DNA of 39,415 nt from a virus, in IMG/VR virus record IMGVR_UViG_3300038701_000689, positions 1-39,415 of that record; one strand, written 5' to 3'. The translations under genes were made by a program, and so were the position numbers. Positions 1-15,715 of this stretch are shown piece after piece (positions within the stretch are counted from its first letter, which is position 1; each line of letters begins with the position of its first letter). The notes beneath the pieces are model-generated. The model worked only from the letters and a program-made list of their open reading frames with translations, was not told the DNA's origin and did no database searches.

Positions 1-3000
1 GAACTTCTTTGTAATATTCTTTATTATTTTCAGAAAAAGCACTAATATTACTAGTATTACCATACTCATAAATATACTGATTTCCCAATCTAATTCCTAA
101 TTTTGGAACAGGTTTATATATAAAATAAGCTTCTTTAGGAGTTTTTTCTGTGGCAACTTTTTGATATAATACACCATCATTACCATTACTTAATAAAATA
201 TAGGGTTTATTATGAATTCCTTTAAAAGACCCTGATTTTATTTCCGGCAGTTTAAGTACATTTTTATTTATTATTTTAACACCATTCAATTGGTTTCTTT
301 TAAGAACTGGTACTAACTCTGGTTTATGCCAATTATTTCTAAATATTTCATTAATTAGTGAAGTACTATCAGTTCCACTATCAGCTAAAAACTCTTTAAA
401 ATGGTATATACCATTTTCTACCAATGGTTCGAGTCTATTAACTGGTATATGTTCATAAAAAGAATTCATATTAGTTTGAAAACCAGAAGTATTAAATGTA
501 TATATTATTAAATCTTCAGCAAAAGATTTTAGTTCTTGATCTTCTTCTTGGTCTATAGCTTGCTCCCAATGTCTAGTAAAATTATTTAATATCTCAACAG
601 ATTTCTTTTTAGTATTATCAAAATTGACAAATTTATATTTTTGTTTAATATCACCTTCTAATAAATTTAAAAAAGGACTATCTTGGTATTTATCTTTTAA
701 TTTAAAAAGTTGATCATATAAAGTATTATCCCCTACAAATAAACTTTCTAAAGATTGTGTACTAGCTCTTAAATCAGTACTTCCAAGTATAGTAGAGAAT
801 AAAGATTTTTCTAATAAGAAACCTAAGTTACTATTTGTTAATAGTTCTTCTTCTGGATTTATGATATTACTTATTGTATTATAAATTTCTTGTGCATAAG
901 GAGTAGCAGTAACTAAAGCTTGTTCAAATATTTTTAATGATAATTCTGTACTATTATCATAATATGTACCTAAAAATGTATTATCAAATTTAGCTTGGTA
1001 ATTTTCAAAGAGATTATTTTGTTTTAATTTACTTACTTTATTTTTATCTACTAAAGCTGATATAAAGTCTTTACCAGCACCATTGACATCTTGTTTGGTA
1101 CTTAGTACAGTTTGAGCAAAATCATTACCAAGGGTTTCCAAATAAGTATAGTAATCTAACATACTTATTTGGTTTGTAATATAATCTTCTATTTTTTTAT
1201 TATTAGTAGATTCTTCATCTGTTAAATTATCTCCTAATGTATAATTTACTTTAGGTTTGTTTAAACCTTTTTCAAAATATTTTTGTATTTTATCATATTG
1301 TTTTTTATCTCTAAAAGAGGTTAATTCTTCAATAGTAGCCTCAGCAGATAAAGTTTTGCTTTTAATATCATTTAATCTATTTTCTGGTATTTCATATTTA
1401 TTAATAAGTTTATTAATAGTTTCATCTCTAACAGAATTATACTTTGGTTCTACTATTCTAGCTTCTCTAGATTTTTTTTCATTAATATACTCTCTAACAG
1501 ATTCTTGCCCTATAATCCTATTAACTATTCTAAATGGTATTCCAGCTCTTTCTAACATAGAAACCACATTTTCTGTTTCTGGTATTCTATTACCTTTAGA
1601 AGTAAAATCTTCTTTAGCTATTTCTAAATAACCGTTTAATCCCATAGAGAGTACTTCTGAAATATTAAATTCACCAGTAGCATCTTTGATATGGTTAAAG
1701 GAAGTTTGATTTCCTTTATATTTTAAATCTTCTTCTAGTTGTTGTAATGGATCAAATTTAGAAGAAGTATAAATTTCCTTTTCTACTTCTATTTGTTTGT
1801 AACTTAATCCTATTTCTTCTGCTAATTTTTCATTTGAAGTTATATTAATTTCAGCCAATTGCTTATTAGCAGCATCTAATACTTCCTTTTGAGTATTACC
1901 TACAAATCCTCTTAAAGGTAAAAAATTACCTGTAGTTTTTTCTAATATGTTATAATTTCCATCATTAGTTTTTGTTAAAAACCCTTTAAAATTAGGAGCT
2001 TCTGTAGCTATAATATCATATCCTTCAAAATCTTTAAAGGTTGTTTTTTTACCTATTTTTTGAAATTCTCCAAAAACTAACCTGCTTTCTTTAACTTTTT
2101 TAAACTTTTTGGTATCTTTTTGTTTTTTAATTTGTTCTATAGGATTAATACCCAAATCCCTATTCATCTTTAAATCAGCTAATTGAGCTAAAGGCATATC
2201 AACTAATTGATTAGATTTTAAACCAACTCCTTTTTTTCCAACTGAATTATCAAATTTTTTATTTATTTGATAACTAGCTGAGAAGAAATTTAATCCTGGA
2301 TCAATTTCATCTTGAAAATATTCTTTAAATGTTTCTCTAACATCTTTTTCCAAAGCTTTGTTATCCAAAGGAGACATCATTTTTTCAAACATTTCTGGAG
2401 CTTCTAATACAGCTCTCATAGTCTCTATTAACTTATTCTCAACAGCTTCTTTAGGTTGCTTATTAGCAGATTTAGTATTATCATATTCAATATATTCTAG
2501 TTTTTCTACTTTACCTACACCATATTCTTTTCTATATTTATCAGCTAATTCATTATTATCAGAGAATAATATTTTAGTAATAACATCATCTTTAGCTTTA
2601 TTGAAAATTTGTTTTTCCTGTAATCTTTTATCTTGTTGCTTTTGTCTTTTTATTTCTACAACAGATTTTTTATTACTGTTAACAAACTTCTTAAACTCTT
2701 CTATATCTTGTTTAGAACCTAATATGTGGATTTGTTCTTTTAATTTAACAAAATGTTGAATACCTTTTTCATTTGTAATTAAATTAAAAGTTGTTTCGTT
2801 TGTTATATCTGGATTATTTAAAATAACAGCTAGAGGTTCTCCATAATTTTTAGCAGCTTGTTGAGTTGTTGTAAAGTAGTACCCATACCCCAATTCTCCA
2901 CTTTCATATGTTCTATCATCATCGGGTTCAAATAATTCAGCATTATTTTTAAATCCTTCTTTTAATATTTTTTCTTTATTGTCAGTACCATGATAAACAA

Positions 3001-6000
3001 TATCTTTTACTTTACTATCAGGGAATATAGTATCAAGATATTGAGAATATTGCTCTGGTGTACCTATATTAGCTAATTCAGGATTAGATTCAAATAGTTC
3101 TGATACTCCCTCTTTAACATCTACCTTCTTTTGTACTTCTGACGAAGAAATATCAAACATTAATTTTAAATCTTCTTCATCTAACTCAATATCGTATTTA
3201 TCTAATATATCTTGTAATGATTCTAAATCATCTCCTATATTATTTTTAATAAATTCTTTAGCATTTTTATAAGTCCCCTTGGTATACTTAACTTTAAGAT
3301 TAGGCATGATAATATACATTTTATCAATATCAAAATCACTACCTGTTTTAGTAGTAATATCTGCATAAGGAATAATTGTATCTCCTGATGATTCAGGTAA
3401 TATACCTACTATCTCTAAACTATCTGTAGAAGACAAAGTTTGGTTAGGAATTCTATAACCTATAATTCTTTTAGTTTTCTCATCTTGAAATAAAGCTCTT
3501 AATTCTTCATTAGTTAGCTTTTTCCAATTAGGTACTAATTTAGATATATACTGAGAAGATATAAATACTTGTCCAGGTTTTACTTTCTTTTTACCATTTG
3601 CAGTAATAACTTCAGGAGCTTGTAATCTATTTCTATCTACTAACATTTTAATGCCTAATTGATCAATATTATAATCATCTATAAACTCATCAATTAACCA
3701 ACTAGATTGTTGTATATAAGCTCCACCATTAGTTTTAATATCTACAGTAGCTTTCTTAATAACACTTTGTAGTATATATTGTATCTCAGTTCTTTTGTTT
3801 GCTATTAAATCTAAAGGGGTTTCTCTTTTTAAAGCCGTAATTAGGTTATCTGGAGAATTTTTATCAATAACAGTTTTTACTAGTTTATCATAAAAAGCTT
3901 CTTTATTTACAATATTACCATCTACATCAAGACCCAATTCTTTATTTAATTGCAATTTGCCTTTATTAGATAAATCAGAAACAACATCAACTAAATCATT
4001 AACCACTTGTTCCCCTAATAAATCTCCTAATTGTTGATCTTTAGTAATTCCTTCAATAATATTTTTAGTAAGCTGTGAGCCTAATAAAGTTTGCTTATTG
4101 CCTTTAGGAGTTAAATCTTGCTGTATTTTATATTCATCATTTCTTAACTCAGTAGTATAAAATTTAGATTTACTAAAATCATCAGTATCTATTTCATTTG
4201 GTAATTTAGCTCCTAGTTTAATACCATCAACTACTACAGCTTCATCTATACCTTCTGCAATCATTTGCTTATGTAATTCATCTAGTTTAGTTCCTTTTAT
4301 TACATGGGGAATTAAAGGAGCAGCAGAATATTTTACATAAGTAAAATGACCTTCTTTAGAAATACCAGAAAACACCCCTTTAATTGGTTGAGCAGTATAT
4401 TGCCAATCTTCAGCAGTTTGTGTACCAGCTTCTATTCTAGTAACAGCTTCAGCAAATTTAGGATTCCAATGGTTACTTCTTTGCATTATAAACTTCCATC
4501 TATCCCAAGTAATCCATCCTTGAGCATCTGTCTGATTAATATTACTATAAGCTTTTGCTAGTTGAGGATAATCAGCTCTAAGTTGTTTTAAATTAACAGA
4601 TTCTACCATTTGATTAGGTAATGTAGCGACTTTAAACCAAGTAGGATCACCTTTTCTTAGATGTAGATATGTTCCATCAGTTATAGTAGATGGGTATCTT
4701 TTAGACAAATCTATAAGCCCCTTAGCTTCAGCCCAATCACTCATAAACAATTTACTAAATTCAATATTAGCTATTAAACTATTTATAGAAAAATCTCTTA
4801 TTATATTTTCAGTATTATTATTATGATATTCTTTTATTTTTTTATCAATACCTAATATATCATTATCTTGATCTAATAAGCCAAGATTGTTAATTAAATT
4901 ATAATCTTGTATATAAGTTGCTTGTAAAGTAGTATTTATTATATCTAAAACTTCAGGAGAGTTTTTAAACTCTTTTTCTGTCCATTGTAATTGGTTATTA
5001 CTGTCAAACATTAAATCCCCATTTATCTTCATAGAAGTTTTTACAAATGGATTTAAGTTTGGAAATAAAGCAGATTTGAAAGCATTACCAGCAGGTCTTA
5101 TGCCTTTTATAGAAGTATCATTGGTTAATACTATAATAGTATTTCCTTCTTTATCTTTTTTAGTATATTCAAAATAATTTACTTTTCCTTTTTTATCTAA
5201 TTTAAAATGGTAGTCCTTTATTAATCTATCTGCATATTTAATTCTAGATTCTTCATCTTTAATATATTCATATTCTTGTATAGCTCTATTTATTTCATCT
5301 AAAGCATATCCAGCAAAAATATCAGTAATTTCTTTAGTATAAGTTTCTTCACCAGTAGTGGAGACATCTATTAAATCGAAACCTTCTATATGTACAGCTC
5401 TACCTTTATCAGCCATGGCAGGGGTATAAAAAATAGAATTCTCTCCTTCTTTTCTACCTTTAAGGGTTTTACTAATCATATCTATAAGTTGATCAGCTTT
5501 TTCAATTTTTTTATTATCAATACCAGCATCTCCAGAAGAATCTTTTTTAAGATTAAGAAAAGTATCTATTTTTAATTTATCTAATTCTTCTTTATTACCT
5601 TCTTTTATATTTTTTCTTACTTTAGCATCCCAAAGACTATATTTATAAAAACCATCTTCTAACTTAGTTTGAGCTAAATCCCCAAGTTTTAACTTTTCCA
5701 GTTTTTGTTTTAGGTAAGTTTTTTGTGAATAATTCCAGTTAGGTTTACCATCAGCCCCTAATGCTGTATTTTCAAATAAATCTATTCTATTTTTTAGTTC
5801 TGCTTGAGCTAATTGCTTAATTATTTTTTTAGCCCCTACATCTTTAGCAAATACATTTAAAGGATTAGTTGGATTACCATCTTGATATAAAACAGCCTCA
5901 CTTGGTTTTGATAGAGTAGTTCTAATATAAGAAAGTTCTCCACCGAGCCTTACAATAGAACCCATTAAATCTAATTCATCTTCCTTTTGATCTTGTTTTA

Positions 6001-7324
6001 AATAATCATATAAAGATTTTTCAGATATTTTAATACCACTTTGATTTAATACTTCTAATAAATCATCAAAATATTCTTGTTTATATTTAATTTTCTTTTG
6101 TCTGAGTTTACCATTAGTACCAATTAAATCATTAATTTTATCAACAACCTCTTTAGCTTTATTTTTATTGTAAACTAGTTTACTTTCCTCTTGATTGTAA
6201 TTAAAAAACTGTGATATAAAATAATTATCCCACTCCTTTTTTAATTTATTTGAAGGAGAATTGGTATTACTACTATTAAATATATTAACTTTTTCTTCCC
6301 CTAAAATAGTTGTAATAAAATTATTGGTTGCTAAATTAAATGCTTGTACAAACTCTGTTTTTTTAAATTGAGGAAATTTTGATATTTCATCTAACAAATA
6401 TTGAACAGTAGCATCATCTGCATATTCAATTCTCATTTTATTAAACATTACATCAAATTTATCTATTTCAATAATATTTTTATTATTGACTACGGATAAA
6501 TCTACTAGAGTAGTAACAAACTTATTATACACCTCATCAAATGAAGCAAAGTAAGGTTGTTCAGAAGTTACACCATTACTAAATGTAATTTCTTGTGTTA
6601 AGGGTTCATATAATTTTTTACCATCTTCATATACAAACCTAAGCTTAGGTACAAAATTAAAAAGTAGTTTAATATTAGCTGAAGCATTATCTTTAGAGTC
6701 CTTTTCAAAAGATTGTTTAAAATCCAAAACCTTTGAATTCTCAATTTCATCATTTGTTTCACCATCTTGTAGTTCCTCTCTGTCTATTACAGTTTTAATA
6801 CCAATATCTTTTAATCTTTTTTCTACTAATCCTTGTAAGATTTGTATTTGATTTTTATTTCCTCCTAATAGTTGATATATAGAACTTTCTGGTTCATATA
6901 ATGTACTAAAACTAACTCCTTCTAATATATCTGCATCGGCAGTAGAATTATCACCAAATAATTCATATAAAGCTAAATCTACTAAGTATTTTTCTGATAC
7001 AGGGTTTAAATCTAGTTTATTAAAATTTAACCAATATTTATCTCCATCTAAAGTAAATATATAATATTCTCCTTGATTATTCTTATGTAATAAAGGCTCA
7101 CCGTCTACATTAGTATGTTTACCTATTTGTAATAATCTATTACCTTCTGGTTTTTTAAAATCTTCTATATAGTCAACACCATATATATTATCTAGAAAAT
7201 CTTTATCAGTAAGCCTAGACCAAAAGTACAAAGCATCATCTTCATTAGGAAATGCTTCTATCAGTTGACCATAAAGTCTAGATTCTTTAGTAGGGTCTAT
7301 TATATTTGCTATTATACAAGTCAT
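1..7324 (-). CDS. Virion-packaged RNA polymerase of crAss-like phage (3' end beyond window), with internal ART-like domain
   Basis: This is a giant protein, at least 2441 residues, whose end lies beyond position 1. The frame was checked codon by codon over about 1-2000 and through the catalytic region, and no stop was seen. It starts at ATG 7324, just after the upstream stop (TAATATG), with MTCIIANIIDPTKES. The segment GYRIPNQTLSS (from residue 1289) leads into GSDFDIDKMY, where D1330, D1332 and D1334 match the metal-binding triad of two-barrel crAss-like RNA polymerases, such as Cellulophaga phage phi14:2 gp66. Later conserved-looking polymerase segments are QPKEAVENKL (from 1623), GKKGVGLKSN (from 1696) and a helical stretch near 1890. 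Between the catalytic loop and 1623 sits an ADP-ribosyltransferase-like domain. By analogy with phi14:2 the protein is packaged, injected and transcribes early genes; that role is inferred. Confidence 0.93.
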   Translation of the reverse strand, partial: MTCIIANIIDPTKESRLYGQLIEAFPNEDDALYFWSRLTDKDFLDNIYGVDYIEDFKKPEGNRLLQIGKHTNVDGEPLLHKNNQGEYYIFTLDGDKYWLNFNKLDLNPVSEKYLVDLALYELFGDNSTADADILEGVSFSTLYEPESSIYQLLGGNKNQIQILQGLVEKRLKDIGIKTVIDREELQDGETNDEIENSKVLDFKQSFEKDSKDNASANIKLLFNFVPKLRFVYEDGKKLYEPLTQEITFSNGVTSEQPYFASFDEVYNKFVTTLVDLSVVNNKNIIEIDKFDVMFNKMRIEYADDATVQYLLDEISKFPQFKKTEFVQAFNLATNNFITTILGEEKVNIFNSSNTNSPSNKLKKEWDNYFISQFFNYNQEESKLVYNKNKAKEVVDKINDLIGTNGKLRQKKIKYKQEYFDDLLEVLNQSGIKISEKSLYDYLKQDQKEDELDLMGSIVRLGGELSYIRTTLSKPSEAVLYQDGNPTNPLNVFAKDVGAKKIIKQLAQAELKNRIDLFENTALGADGKPNWNYSQKTYLKQKLEKLKLGDLAQTKLEDGFYKYSLWDAKVRKNIKEGNKEELDKLKIDTFLNLKKDSSGDAGIDNKKIEKADQLIDMISKTLKGRKEGENSIFYTPAMADKGRAVHIEGFDLIDVSTTGEETYTKEITDIFAGYALDEINRAIQEYEYIKDEESRIKYADRLIKDYHFKLDKKGKVNYFEYTKKDKEGNTIIVLTNDTSIKGIRPAGNAFKSALFPNLNPFVKTSMKINGDLMFDSNNQLQWTEKEFKNSPEVLDIINTTLQATYIQDYNLINNLGLLDQDNDILGIDKKIKEYHNNNTENIIRDFSINSLIANIEFSKLFMSDWAEAKGLIDLSKRYPSTITDGTYLHLRKGDPTWFKVATLPNQMVESVNLKQLRADYPQLAKAYSNINQTDAQGWITWDRWKFIMQRSNHWNPKFAEAVTRIEAGTQTAEDWQYTAQPIKGVFSGISKEGHFTYVKYSAAPLIPHVIKGTKLDELHKQMIAEGIDEAVVVDGIKLGAKLPNEIDTDDFSKSKFYTTELRNDEYKIQQDLTPKGNKQTLLGSQLTKNIIEGITKDQQLGDLLGEQVVNDLVDVVSDLSNKGKLQLNKELGLDVDGNIVNKEAFYDKLVKTVIDKNSPDNLITALKRETPLDLIANKRTEIQYILQSVIKKATVDIKTNGGAYIQQSSWLIDEFIDDYNIDQLGIKMLVDRNRLQAPEVITANGKKKVKPGQVFISSQYISKLVPNWKKLTNEELRALFQDEKTKRIIGYRIPNQTLSSTDSLEIVGILPESSGDTIIPYADITTKTGSDFDIDKMYIIMPNLKVKYTKGTYKNAKEFIKNNIGDDLESLQDILDKYDIELDEEDLKLMFDISSSEVQKKVDVKEGVSELFESNPELANIGTPEQYSQYLDTIFPDSKVKDIVYHGTDNKEKILKEGFKNNAELFEPDDDRTYESGELGYGYYFTTTQQAAKNYGEPLAVILNNPDITNETTFNLITNEKGIQHFVKLKEQIHILGSKQDIEEFKKFVNSNKKSVVEIKRQKQQDKRLQEKQIFNKAKDDVITKILFSDNNELADKYRKEYGVGKVEKLEYIEYDNTKSANKQPKEAVENKLIETMRAVLEAPEMFEKMMSPLDNKALEKDVRETFKEYFQDEIDPGLNFFSASYQINKKFDNSVGKKGVGLKSNQLVDMPLAQLADLKMNRDLGINPIEQIKKQKDTKKFKKVKESRLVFGEFQKIGKKTTFKDFEGYDIIATEAPNFKGFLTKTNDGNYNILEKTTGNFLPLRGFVGNTQKEVLDAANKQLAEINITSNEKLAEEIGLSYKQIEVEKEIYTSSKFDPLQQLEEDLKYKGNQTSFNHIKDATGEFNISEVLSMGLNGYLEIAKEDFTSKGNRIPETENVVSMLERAGIPFRIVNRIIGQESVREYINEKKSREARIVEPKYNSVRDETINKLINKYEIPENRLNDIKSKTLSAEATIEELTSFRDKKQYDKIQKYFEKGLNKPKVNYTLGDNLTDEESTNNKKIEDYITNQISMLDYYTYLETLGNDFAQTVLSTKQDVNGAGKDFISALVDKNKVSKLKQNNLFENYQAKFDNTFLGTYYDNSTELSLKIFEQALVTATPYAQEIYNTISNIINPEEELLTNSNLGFLLEKSLFSTILGSTDLRASTQSLESLFVGDNTLYDQLFKLKDKYQDSPFLNLLEGDIKQKYKFVNFDNTKKKSVEILNNFTRHWEQAIDQEEDQELKSFAEDLIIYTFNTSGFQTNMNSFYEHIPVNRLEPLVENGIYHFKEFLADSGTDSTSLINEIFRNNWHKPELVPVLKRNQLNGVKIINKNVLKLPEIKSGSFKGIHNKPYILLSNGNDGVLYQKVATEKTPKEAYFIYKPVPKLGIRLGNQYIYEYGNTSNISAFSENNKEYYKEV
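2795..3097 (-). other. ADP-ribosyltransferase-like (ART-PolyVal type) domain within the virion RNA polymerase
   Basis: Residues about 1410-1510 of the polymerase read NPELANIGTPEQYSQYLDTI, then DIVYHGTDN (H1445), GYGYYFTTTQQAAKNYG (from 1479) and AVILNNPDI (from 1499). The order YHGT, then YYFT followed by an A..YG helix, then a V.LNNP strand is that of H-Y-E class ADP-ribosyltransferases. The NPELxxIGTPEQY(S)xYLDxIFP lead-in is typical of the ART-PolyVal-like domain of phage and conjugative-element polyvalent proteins. The third acidic catalytic residue could not be assigned. Activity and target are unknown. Confidence 0.82.
3323..3337 (-). other. RNA polymerase catalytic motif DFDID
   Basis: Five codons in frame with the start at 7324 encode D1330-F-D-I-D1334, within GSDFDIDKMYIIMPN. 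In the two-barrel RNA polymerase superfamily (crAss-like virion polymerases, YonO, eukaryotic RNA-dependent polymerases) such an acidic triad holds the catalytic magnesium. All three aspartates are present, so the enzyme should be active. The preceding stretch includes GYRIPNQ (1289-1295) and ILPESSGDT. Confidence 0.93.
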
Positions 7325-13580: not shown

Positions 13581-15071
13581 TTATTTTCTTTTTCTTGTTT
13601 TAAGTATATTTTTTAAGAAGTCACTAGTAGTTCCAGGGTTTTTACCATATTGTCCTGTATAACCATAACCTAATGCTTCCTCTACTGCTTTAGCCATCAA
13701 TTGTTCTTTTTGCCTAGCAGATAAATTTTCAGCTATTTGAGACATAATATTAGATTTATTAGATTGGTAAGCACCCAAATTTCTAGCATTAATATCTTCT
13801 ATTTGAAATCCTAATCCAATATTAGTTTGTTCAGTTCCTTGTCTAGCTAATTCTTGTTGCATCAACATTTGTTCTACTCTAGCTCTTTCACTAGCATTCA
13901 TTTGATCTACTTGTAAATTAGATTGTTGTTGTCCCATTCTAGCCCTACCAATAGCATCCATAACATTAGCTTTATTGGCTTGTTCATTAGCTAAAAATTG
14001 ACCAGAATTCCCACCAGATATGTTTCTATTAGTAGCACTAAATGTAGCAGCTTGTTCTTGAATACCTCTTTCAATAGGAGACATATCTACTTTTTCATAA
14101 TATTGTTGAGTAGGTACTTGAAAGTTAGGAGTATCTACTTGATAATCATTTAGTTGTGATCTAACATCTTTTGGTTTTCTAGCAGATAATAATTGTCCTA
14201 TATTCATAGCTAGTGGAGCTAAGTTAGATAAATTATAATTGCCAGAAGGATTTACTAAATCCGCAGTATTATAAGAACTACCTATAGAAGTATTATTAAT
14301 TCCTACTTGATTTTTAATAGCATTAGTAAAATCATCAGTACCTATAGTACTATTATTAAAACCCAACCCTACAGTATTTTGTCCCACATTGGTATCAAAA
14401 TTTAAATTAGGTTTTTGAAAAAGGGGATTAAAAGGTCCACCCACATCAAAAAATTTCCTATCTCCTGTTTTTCTGGTTTTAGAATCAAATTTAGGGTTTG
14501 ATTTAACTTTCCTCATTGGGGGTAAAGAGCTTAATACTTTTTGTATATCTATAGGTTGAGAAATAGTACTATCTTGCTCTACATTATTTATAGGAGGACT
14601 AACAGTGGTTCTAGTAGGTTTTACATTACTTACAAAACTCTCAGATGGAATGTCTACTACAGTATAACTTCCATCTTCATTTTGTATTTTATAAGAAAAG
14701 GGTTTTGGTTTATCTTCGTCATTATCTAAATCTCCCCCTGTTTCAAAATTTTGATTATAACTTTGACTTACTTTATTACTTACAGGTTGTTCTATATTAG
14801 GTAGGGCAGGGTTATTATTTTCAGTAATAGGAATTTGTTCTTCCATTACTTGTTGTTGCCCAATATTAGCAATAGTTTCAGTTAGTTTTTGTTGAAACAT
14901 TTGTTTCATTTGTTCCTGTTCCCTAACTTGTTCTTGTGCTTCTTTTAAAGAGGTCATTTCTTTCCTTCTACCTCTATTAGTAATAGGATCAAATCTATTT
15001 TCATATTTCTTTTGAATATCTTTAGATATTTCTGCAAAAGATTTTCCTTTGTATTTTTCTGGTAATGCCAT
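13581..15071 (-). CDS. Virion cargo protein, C-terminal part (496 aa), probably split from the 214-aa protein
   Basis: The N-terminus MALPEKYKGKSFAEISKDIQ is followed by DPITNRGRRKEM and a glutamine-rich coiled coil (about 40-85). A low-complexity linker with FETGGDLDNDEDKPK comes next, and then a long helical C-terminal region (about 340-470) rich in Gln, Asn and Ala. In related Bacteroidota phage proteins, as I remember them, a KGKSFAEISK-like segment follows directly after a YxFSDRL motif in the same chain. Here YIFSDRL ends the neighbouring 214-aa protein, and the two reading frames meet at TAATG with a one-base overlap. Position after the muzzle and composition support a packaged cargo role; the precise role is unknown. 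Confidence 0.62.
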   Translation of the reverse strand: MALPEKYKGKSFAEISKDIQKKYENRFDPITNRGRRKEMTSLKEAQEQVREQEQMKQMFQQKLTETIANIGQQQVMEEQIPITENNNPALPNIEQPVSNKVSQSYNQNFETGGDLDNDEDKPKPFSYKIQNEDGSYTVVDIPSESFVSNVKPTRTTVSPPINNVEQDSTISQPIDIQKVLSSLPPMRKVKSNPKFDSKTRKTGDRKFFDVGGPFNPLFQKPNLNFDTNVGQNTVGLGFNNSTIGTDDFTNAIKNQVGINNTSIGSSYNTADLVNPSGNYNLSNLAPLAMNIGQLLSARKPKDVRSQLNDYQVDTPNFQVPTQQYYEKVDMSPIERGIQEQAATFSATNRNISGGNSGQFLANEQANKANVMDAIGRARMGQQQSNLQVDQMNASERARVEQMLMQQELARQGTEQTNIGLGFQIEDINARNLGAYQSNKSNIMSQIAENLSARQKEQLMAKAVEEALGYGYTGQYGKNPGTTSDFLKNILKTRKRK

Positions 15072-15715
15072 TATTCGTATTTTAATCTATCTGAAAATAT
15101 ATAATTTCCTTCTTTGAATTTGTATTTAGATTCATTTTCTTCTACCATCCTCATTTGTCCATCAGAATTATAACCTTGAGGTATTCCTCCTAATGGGTTT
15201 ATTTCATGTGACCCACCATTATTAAATTCCGTGAAAGTTCCTACTGGATTTAATGTACTAGTTTGGTTCATATCTCCCCCCATAGCCATTGGTAAATTAC
15301 TCATATTTGAAGGAGTCATTAAACTATTAATTACAGACATATTTTGTTGTGTAATTTGTGATCTTTGTTGTTCTTCTAATTGATCTTGTATTTCTTCCTG
15401 TTCTTTTCTTTTTTTATCATTAACTAAATTAGATATTCCTACTATTGGATTTATTGCAAACCCCGCTGCCTTACCCAATTTAGATTGACCAAACTTAGTG
15501 TTATTATACATTTTACCTAATCCAGTAGATAATCCTATTATTGCTCCAGCAGCAGCTCCGTATGGTCCTGCTACACTAGCACCAGTGGATGCCAAAGAAG
15601 CAGATTGTTGAAAAGTATTTCCTATATCAGAACCAAATTGCCCATTATTCCAATAATCACTAGAAAATTGTCCTCCTAAATTATATTTAATACTATTTGG
15701 TATTTTTTTTCTCAT
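15071..15715 (-). CDS. Virion cargo protein, N-terminal part (214 aa) ending in a NPxGGI...YIFSDRL motif
   Basis: This is a glycine-rich start (YNLGGQFSSDYWNNGQFGSD) followed by an Ala/Gly-rich helix (about residues 35-75, ASVAGPYGAAAGAIIGLSTG) that could be membrane-active. A short coiled coil rich in Glu and Gln (about 100-125) comes next. The conserved-looking C-terminal block reads GGSHEINPLGGIPQGYN, then MVEENESKYKF, then YIFSDRLKY. This block recurs in structural proteins of Bacteroidota phages, usually inside longer proteins. The stop codon overlaps the start of the 496-aa gene (TAATG), so translation is probably coupled by reinitiation. I infer it is the first half of a cargo protein. 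Confidence 0.6.
   Translation of the reverse strand: MRKKIPNSIKYNLGGQFSSDYWNNGQFGSDIGNTFQQSASLASTGASVAGPYGAAAGAIIGLSTGLGKMYNNTKFGQSKLGKAAGFAINPIVGISNLVNDKKRKEQEEIQDQLEEQQRSQITQQNMSVINSLMTPSNMSNLPMAMGGDMNQTSTLNPVGTFTEFNNGGSHEINPLGGIPQGYNSDGQMRMVEENESKYKFKEGNYIFSDRLKYE

What the first reader, a model, noticed from the sequence alone, without database searches (positions are those of the whole stretch)
2795..3337. ADP-ribosyltransferase-like domain embedded in the virion RNA polymerase, right after the catalytic DFDID loop
Seen: residues 1410-1510 contain NPELANIGTPEQYSQYLDTI, VYHGT (H1445), GYYFT (1481-1485) and V.LNNP, in one open frame with DFDID (1330-1334). Established: the YHGT...Y-F-T...LN layout is that of H-Y-E ADP-ribosyltransferases, and the NPEL..IGTPEQY lead-in is known from ART-PolyVal-like domains. 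Phage T4 injects the ADP-ribosyltransferase Alt with its DNA to modify host RNA polymerase. Inference: here the transferase is built into the injected polymerase itself, between the catalytic loop and the next conserved segment (QPKEAVENKL, 1623). One molecule could thus both transcribe phage early genes and modify host targets, or modify itself.
Basis: partly seen in the sequence, partly recalled or inferred. Interest (0 to 1): 0.88.

Follow-up and report, generated by a model that had tools for sequence, protein, structure and literature searches.

The report
ADP-ribosyltransferase inside an injected phage polymerase
A crAss-like phage carries a protein-modifying enzyme domain (an ADP-ribosyltransferase) inside the catalytic core of the RNA polymerase it is expected to inject into its host, and related phages repeatedly plug the same module into, or beside, their own polymerases.

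Summary
Residues ~1398-1560 of the crAss-like virion RNA polymerase (window 2663-3133, minus strand) form an ART-superfamily domain in one open frame, 83 residues after DFDID. A profile of relatives that excludes its own subclade finds it at E=3e-40. 50 of 69 relatives match Pfam ART-PolyVal. An AlphaFold model (pLDDT 88) matches PARP/tankyrase ART domains. The third catalytic position is Gln (H1445-Y1483-Q1523), so it is H-Y-Q, not H-Y-E, and activity is untested. The module sits in a hypervariable loop: phi14:2 and 78 other related polymerases lack it there. It is not unique. About 30 distinct crAss-like RNAP-ART fusions were found in IMG/VR, mostly N- or C-terminal. Two more lie inside the core, at another loop just before DFDID, and one of these has ~95% identical relatives with the empty site. 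Of 80 ART loci fetched by ART sequence alone, 58 are fused to or within 8 kb of this RNAP. N4-like virion RNAP-ART fusions were already described, so this is a new variant of a known kind: an effector cassette carried in the core of a different injected polymerase. Most likely mechanism: tethered, co-injected mono-ADP-ribosylation of host proteins early in infection (inferred).

The parts
2..7324 (-). crAss-like virion RNA polymerase, 2441 aa, C-terminus off the window (P0001)
   Evidence: phmmer to 6vr4 (phi14:2 gp66) E 1.1e-145; tblastn to phi14:2 76% covered, 28% identity; crAss muzzle, cargo, ring and capsid genes alongside
3323..3337 (-). catalytic DFDID motif, residues 1330-1334
   Evidence: aligned with 79 relatives
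3131..3292 (-). N-terminal part of the lineage-specific helical insertion after DFDID, also present in phi14:2, L006, L050
   Evidence: alignment
2663..3133 (-). complete ART module, residues ~1398-1554
   Evidence: profile matches 2789-3133 and 2663-2776; AF2 pLDDT 88.4, pTM 0.79; fold matches all ART
2999..3115 (-). conserved leader KEGVSELFESNPELANIGTPEQYSQYLDTIFPDSKVKDI, helical in the model
   Evidence: region 1404-1447: mean pairwise identity 67% in the family against 23.5% in the middle
2990..2992 (-). His1445, first catalytic residue, strand 1
   Evidence: H in 68, R in 9 of 77; strand 45-49 of the model
2876..2878 (-). Tyr1483, second catalytic residue, strand 2
   Evidence: Y 46, F 22 of 77; strand 84-87 of the model
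2756..2758 (-). Gln1523 at the third catalytic position, strand 5 (Glu is the commonest residue in relatives)
   Evidence: E 27, Q 17, D 5 of 75; strand 121-128 of the model
2681..2737 (-). conserved tail EQIHILGSKQDIEEFKKFV
   Evidence: region 1529-1547: 71% mean pairwise identity in the family
2525..2659 (-). charged linker and the C-terminal part of the helical insertion
   Evidence: alignment with L050 and phi14:2
2429..2458 (-). QPKEAVENKL, where the conserved polymerase resumes
   Evidence: column occupancy rises from <0.4 to >0.95 here; phmmer segment 1586-1727 to 6vr4 1448-1589

Best explanation
An ART-PolyVal/PARP-like ADP-ribosyltransferase cassette has been inserted in frame into an exposed, hypervariable loop of the crAss-like virion RNA polymerase. 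The polymerase is packaged and ejected into the host cell, so the transferase is delivered with it as one polypeptide and refolds as a separate lobe. There it most likely transfers ADP-ribose from NAD+ to one or more host proteins (mono-ADP-ribosylation, T4 Alt-like in logic) while the polymerase starts early transcription. Shown here by computation: domain identity and fold, embedding, conservation, empty sites, and recurrent linkage to the RNAP. From the literature: packaging and injection of relatives. Inferred: activity with a Gln third residue, exposure as a separate lobe, the identity of the targets, and tethered action.
For: Homology and fold: profiles; AF2 pLDDT 88.4; top solved structures PARP4, tankyrases, PARP1/2, Foldseek E 0.04, Z up to 7.2; viral PARP-like and PolyVal ART proteins. 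Embedding; none of 79 related RNAP loci has it at this site. Purifying selection on the module (window-L003 dN 0.053, dS 0.80). Coupling to the injected polymerase: 25 of 80 ART-selected viral loci fused and 33 more with the RNAP nearby on the same strand; ~30 distinct fusions, mostly C- or N-terminal, 3 in the core. Occupied and empty site in near-identical polymerases, L215 against L263-L265. crAss001 RNAP proteins are in the virion and must be ejected (PMC10172136). An Alt-like role was proposed for N4-like RNAP-ART fusions (PMC5512222).
Against: Gln1523 replaces Glu/Asp, and the family's YDG motif is absent in this subclade, so activity could be low. No biochemical data. Fold matches are consistent but modest (E 0.04, Z about 7). 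The polymerase fragment with the insert was modelled on a faulty alignment, so independence of the lobe rests on loop variability and on the isolated model. This ART's own target is unknown.
Confidence: 0.6

Rival explanations
1. Catalytically dead or binding-only ART: Gln1523 abolishes transfer and the domain serves as an NAD+ sensor, adaptor or structural lobe.
For: Third position Q instead of E/D; YDG motif missing in the window, L002, L003 and L043. Leader and tail are conserved far more than the catalytic middle.
Against: H1445 and Y1483 kept; Q conserved in all four subclade members and found in 17 of 75 modules; strong purifying selection.
Confidence: 0.17
2. Cis-acting module: the ART modifies the phage polymerase itself or its partner subunits, switching it between virion, early and late states.
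For: Embedding close to DFDID makes the core the nearest substrate and rules out separation by cleavage.
Against: The same module occurs as a solo ORF, in non-RNAP giant proteins and at polymerase termini, and near-identical polymerases lack it altogether.
Confidence: 0.12
3. Neutral mobile cassette: it spreads by recombination into tolerant loops with little function in this context.
For: Recent gain or loss between ~95% identical polymerases; many host-protein contexts; RNAP-fusion label changes at least 6 times on the tree.
Against: Purifying selection; strong association with the RNAP block; no convincing direct repeats at the window's boundaries; identical-codon share about the same in the conserved ends and the middle.
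Confidence: 0.08
4. Assembly chimera joining a polymerase to a paralogous ART gene.
Against: In-frame continuity on both sides inside a conserved insertion; GC and GC3 equal to the flanks; two independent contigs with core-embedded ART, one with a precise empty site.
Confidence: 0.03

Closest known systems
ART domains of phage polyvalent proteins (Pfam PF18760 ART-PolyVal, Tox-ART-HYD2 clade)
   Same: Same fold and H/Y positions; inserted in giant phage proteins expected to be injected (PMC5512222).
   Different: Third residue Gln instead of Asp/Glu; carries a conserved ~40-residue leader outside the Pfam match; sits inside a polymerase core.
N4-like virion RNA polymerase fused to ART (Roseovarius Plymouth podovirus 1)
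   Same: Injected virion RNAP and ART in one polypeptide; an Alt-like role was proposed (PMC5512222).
   Different: Unrelated single-subunit polymerase; the paper describes fusion, and insertion into the catalytic core is not mentioned in the passages read.
Cellulophaga phage phi14:2 gp66 (PDB 6vr4)
   Same: Homologous polymerase, colinear over the core, with the same helical insertion after DFDID.
   Different: No ART: residues 1384-1585 here correspond to ~20 residues there.
Phage T4 Alt
   Same: Works-like comparison: ART packaged in the head and injected with the DNA, acting on host RNAP.
   Different: R-S-E clade ART, separate protein, different family.
PARP/tankyrase catalytic domains
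   Same: Best fold matches; YHGT...YYFT...EQ layout corresponds to their catalytic motifs.
   Different: Gln at the PARP1 Glu988 position; ~15% identity; no regulatory helical domain.

Membership tests
ART-PolyVal / ADP-ribosyltransferase superfamily | Significant profile match | tested here: met
   Window copy sub-threshold (E 0.007), but relatives reach 5e-14 (50 of 69) and the relatives' profile hits the window at 3e-40
ART-PolyVal / ADP-ribosyltransferase superfamily | ART fold | tested here: met
   AF2 pLDDT 88; the top PDB matches and all VIA rows shown are ART domains
ART-PolyVal / ADP-ribosyltransferase superfamily | His in strand 1 and Tyr in strand 2 | tested here: met
   H1445, Y1483
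ART-PolyVal / ADP-ribosyltransferase superfamily | Acidic third residue (Asp/Glu) in strand 5; this marks the H-Y-D/E active-site subtype, and ART superfamily members with other third residues are known | tested here: not met
   Q1523; the family column also holds Q in 17 of 75 modules. So it is filed as an ART-superfamily domain, not as an H-Y-D/E enzyme
ART-PolyVal / ADP-ribosyltransferase superfamily | NAD+-dependent transfer activity | not testable with these tools
   needs an assay
crAss-like virion RNA polymerase | Homology to phi14:2 gp66 with an intact DFDID motif | tested here: met
   E 1.1e-145; DFDID 1330-1334
crAss-like virion RNA polymerase | Location in the virion-gene block of a Crassvirales genome | tested here: met
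   muzzle, CARG1, ring, auxiliary capsid and major capsid proteins
crAss-like virion RNA polymerase | Packaged in virions and ejected | not testable with these tools
   known for relatives (PMC10172136)

The most novel reading that the evidence does not exclude
The catalytic core of crAss-like injected polymerases is a chassis: phages gain and lose effector cassettes in its exposed loops (after DFDID; between GGxxIQ and GYRIPNQ). Keeping the ART physically on the transcribing polymerase lets it act locally, for example on host RNAP or transcription/translation factors near phage DNA, or by attaching NAD-initiated transcripts to proteins.
Probability: 0.3. Interest if true: 0.8.

Novelty: new variant of a known kind. 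Interest (0 to 1): 0.63.

Why it matters
CrAss-like phages are among the most abundant phages known, yet what their ejected proteins do beyond transcription is largely open. A recurrent transferase carried on, beside or inside the ejected polymerase gives a concrete, assayable early host-takeover candidate. The naturally occurring occupied and empty sites make its contribution testable.

Tried and rejected
The Pfam scan of the whole 2441-aa protein missed the ART; the piece had to be scanned alone. The profile of A2 against PDB sequences found nothing. AF2 of residues 1100-1780 was run on alignment A3, in which the polymerase rows were misaligned around DFDID; the result (pLDDT 66, pTM 0.35) is uninformative for the core, although the ART part took the same secondary structure. 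An intein or homing element was considered: the insert is largely accounted for by the ART module, and the Pfam scan of the insert showed no splicing or endonuclease family. Boundary repeats: only weak, AT-rich chance-like matches. Recombination hot-spot ends: codon identity at identical residues is about equal in ends and middle. Annotated phage genomes hold no close copy. Literature searches found no crAss-like RNAP-ART report; subscription papers, including the gp66 structure paper, could not be read.

Full report
WHAT IS THERE. The minus strand of window 2-7324 is one open frame of 2441 residues that runs off the window. It is the crAss-like virion RNA polymerase: phmmer matches phi14:2 gp66 (PDB 6vr4) at E 1.1e-145, tblastn covers 76% of it at 28% identity, and the rest of the window holds Crassvirales muzzle, cargo, ring, auxiliary capsid and major capsid proteins. 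All motifs quoted in the finding are at the stated places.

IS IT AN ART? Pfam ART-PolyVal gives only E 0.007 (17.6 bits, cut-off 31.2) for the window copy. Relatives settle it. Of 69 aligned modules, 50 match ART-PolyVal (best 5e-14), 4 match PARP (7.5e-7) and 1 KptA; several exceed the curated cut-off. A profile from which the window and its three nearest relatives were removed hits the window at 3.3e-40, and at 1.3e-13 when the conserved leader is also removed. The AlphaFold model of residues 1399-1575 has pLDDT 88.4 and pTM 0.79. Its top Foldseek matches in the PDB are PARP4, tankyrase and PARP1/2 ART domains (E from 0.04). The 50 VIA rows shown are all ART domains, Z 6.6-7.2. These structure scores are modest, but they agree with the sequence evidence.

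CATALYTIC RESIDUES. His1445 lies in strand 1 and Tyr1483 in strand 2. Counting back from the conserved EQIHILG, the position that is Glu in relatives with NEYVVFEPEQIHILG (like NEYIVYD around PARP1 Glu988; PARP sequence from memory) is Gln1523 here, in strand 5. The column is E 27, Q 17, D 5 of 75. The window, L002, L003 and L043 all have Gln. So the layout is H-Y-Q, a natural subclass whose activity is unknown. The module is under purifying selection (window-L003 dN 0.053, dS 0.80).

WHERE IT SITS. Between DFDIDKMY and the conserved QNRLIELY-like segment, related polymerases have anything from a ~25-residue turn (L004, L007) to a ~100-residue helical insertion (phi14:2, L006, L050). The window has that helical insertion with the ART placed inside it. 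Against 6vr4, residues 1384-1585 are extra. None of the 79 related RNAP loci has an ART there. The nearest, L050, has no ART anywhere in its 94-kb contig. The window has a single copy, and its GC and GC3 equal the flanks.

IT RECURS. The same module (leader VKxGVxELFESNPELAxIGTxEQYSQYLDTIFPDSKVKDIVYHG; tail EPEQIHILGSKQDIEGFK) is widespread in environmental phage contigs: solo ORFs of ~200 aa, giant polyvalent-like proteins, and polymerase fusions. Of 80 loci fetched by ART alone, 25 are fused to a crAss-like RNAP homologue and 33 have one nearby on the same strand. A profile classification found 19 C-terminal, 9 N-terminal and 2 core-internal fusions plus one unassigned. L182 carries two of the N-terminal copies, and one of the nine, L215, proved core-internal on inspection. 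On the module tree the window groups with L003 (giant protein), L002 (solo) and L043 (RNAP C-terminus) at 100/95, and RNAP fusion changes state at least six times on well-supported branches; bootstrap values are rough.

INSIDE THE CORE, THREE TIMES. L160/L233 carries the ART between GGAFVQLSS and GYRIPTE, just upstream of the DFDID position, where the contig ends. L215 carries it in the same loop, upstream of its intact DFDID. Three contigs with ~95% identical polymerase (L263-L265) have only two residues (DE) where L215 has 205, and no ART in the rest of their contigs. This is a clean occupied/empty pair. It shows that the polymerase does not need the module and argues against misassembly as the general explanation.

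HOW IT PROBABLY WORKS. crAss001 RNAP-associated proteins are virion cargo expected to unfold and refold during ejection (PMC10172136). Iyer et al. described ART fused to the unrelated N4-like virion RNAP and proposed Alt-like modification of host proteins coupled to early transcription (PMC5512222). By the same logic this ART is delivered with, and stays on, the polymerase. Activity, target and the purpose of tethering are inference.

NOVELTY. ART-virion RNAP fusion is a known theme. I found no report for crAss-like polymerases and none of insertion in the catalytic core, but not all papers are searchable. The module is absent from annotated phage records apart from three remote matches. I rate it a new variant of a known kind.

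Noticed in passing
L215:2-1441 against L263-L265:4001-4831: Near-identical crAss-like polymerases with and without an ART cassette in the loop between GGxxIQ and GYRIPNQ: 205 residues replace two residues (DE).
   Followed up: yes
module residues 1404-1447 and 1529-1547 (window 2684-3115): Leader and tail are ~67-71% identical on average across the family while the catalytic middle is only ~24%: the reverse of a usual enzyme, perhaps a conserved scaffold with a fast-evolving active site.
   Followed up: partly
window 13581-15071 and 15071-15715 (-): The Pfam crAss cargo protein 1 domain is split over two ORFs that overlap by one base (profile 2-66 in one, 75-128 in the other): split gene, coupling or a sequence error.
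   Followed up: no
L163-L175 (genome contigs): Solo ~200-aa ORFs with the same leader and ART occur in Patescibacteria (Falkowbacteria, Nomurabacteria, Paceibacterota) contigs, most grouping on the tree; whether prophage or cellular was not determined.
   Followed up: no
L182, ORF of 4382+ aa: A contig binned as Rickettsiales has two ART copies (aa 1652-1786 and 1828-1977) upstream of a crAss-like RNAP core in one open frame.
   Followed up: no
L003 ORF 1256-9247: The leader is split there: FESNPELANEVYEALGF is separated from YSQYLDTVFPDSKVKDIVYHG by ~100 residues, suggesting two building blocks.
   Followed up: no
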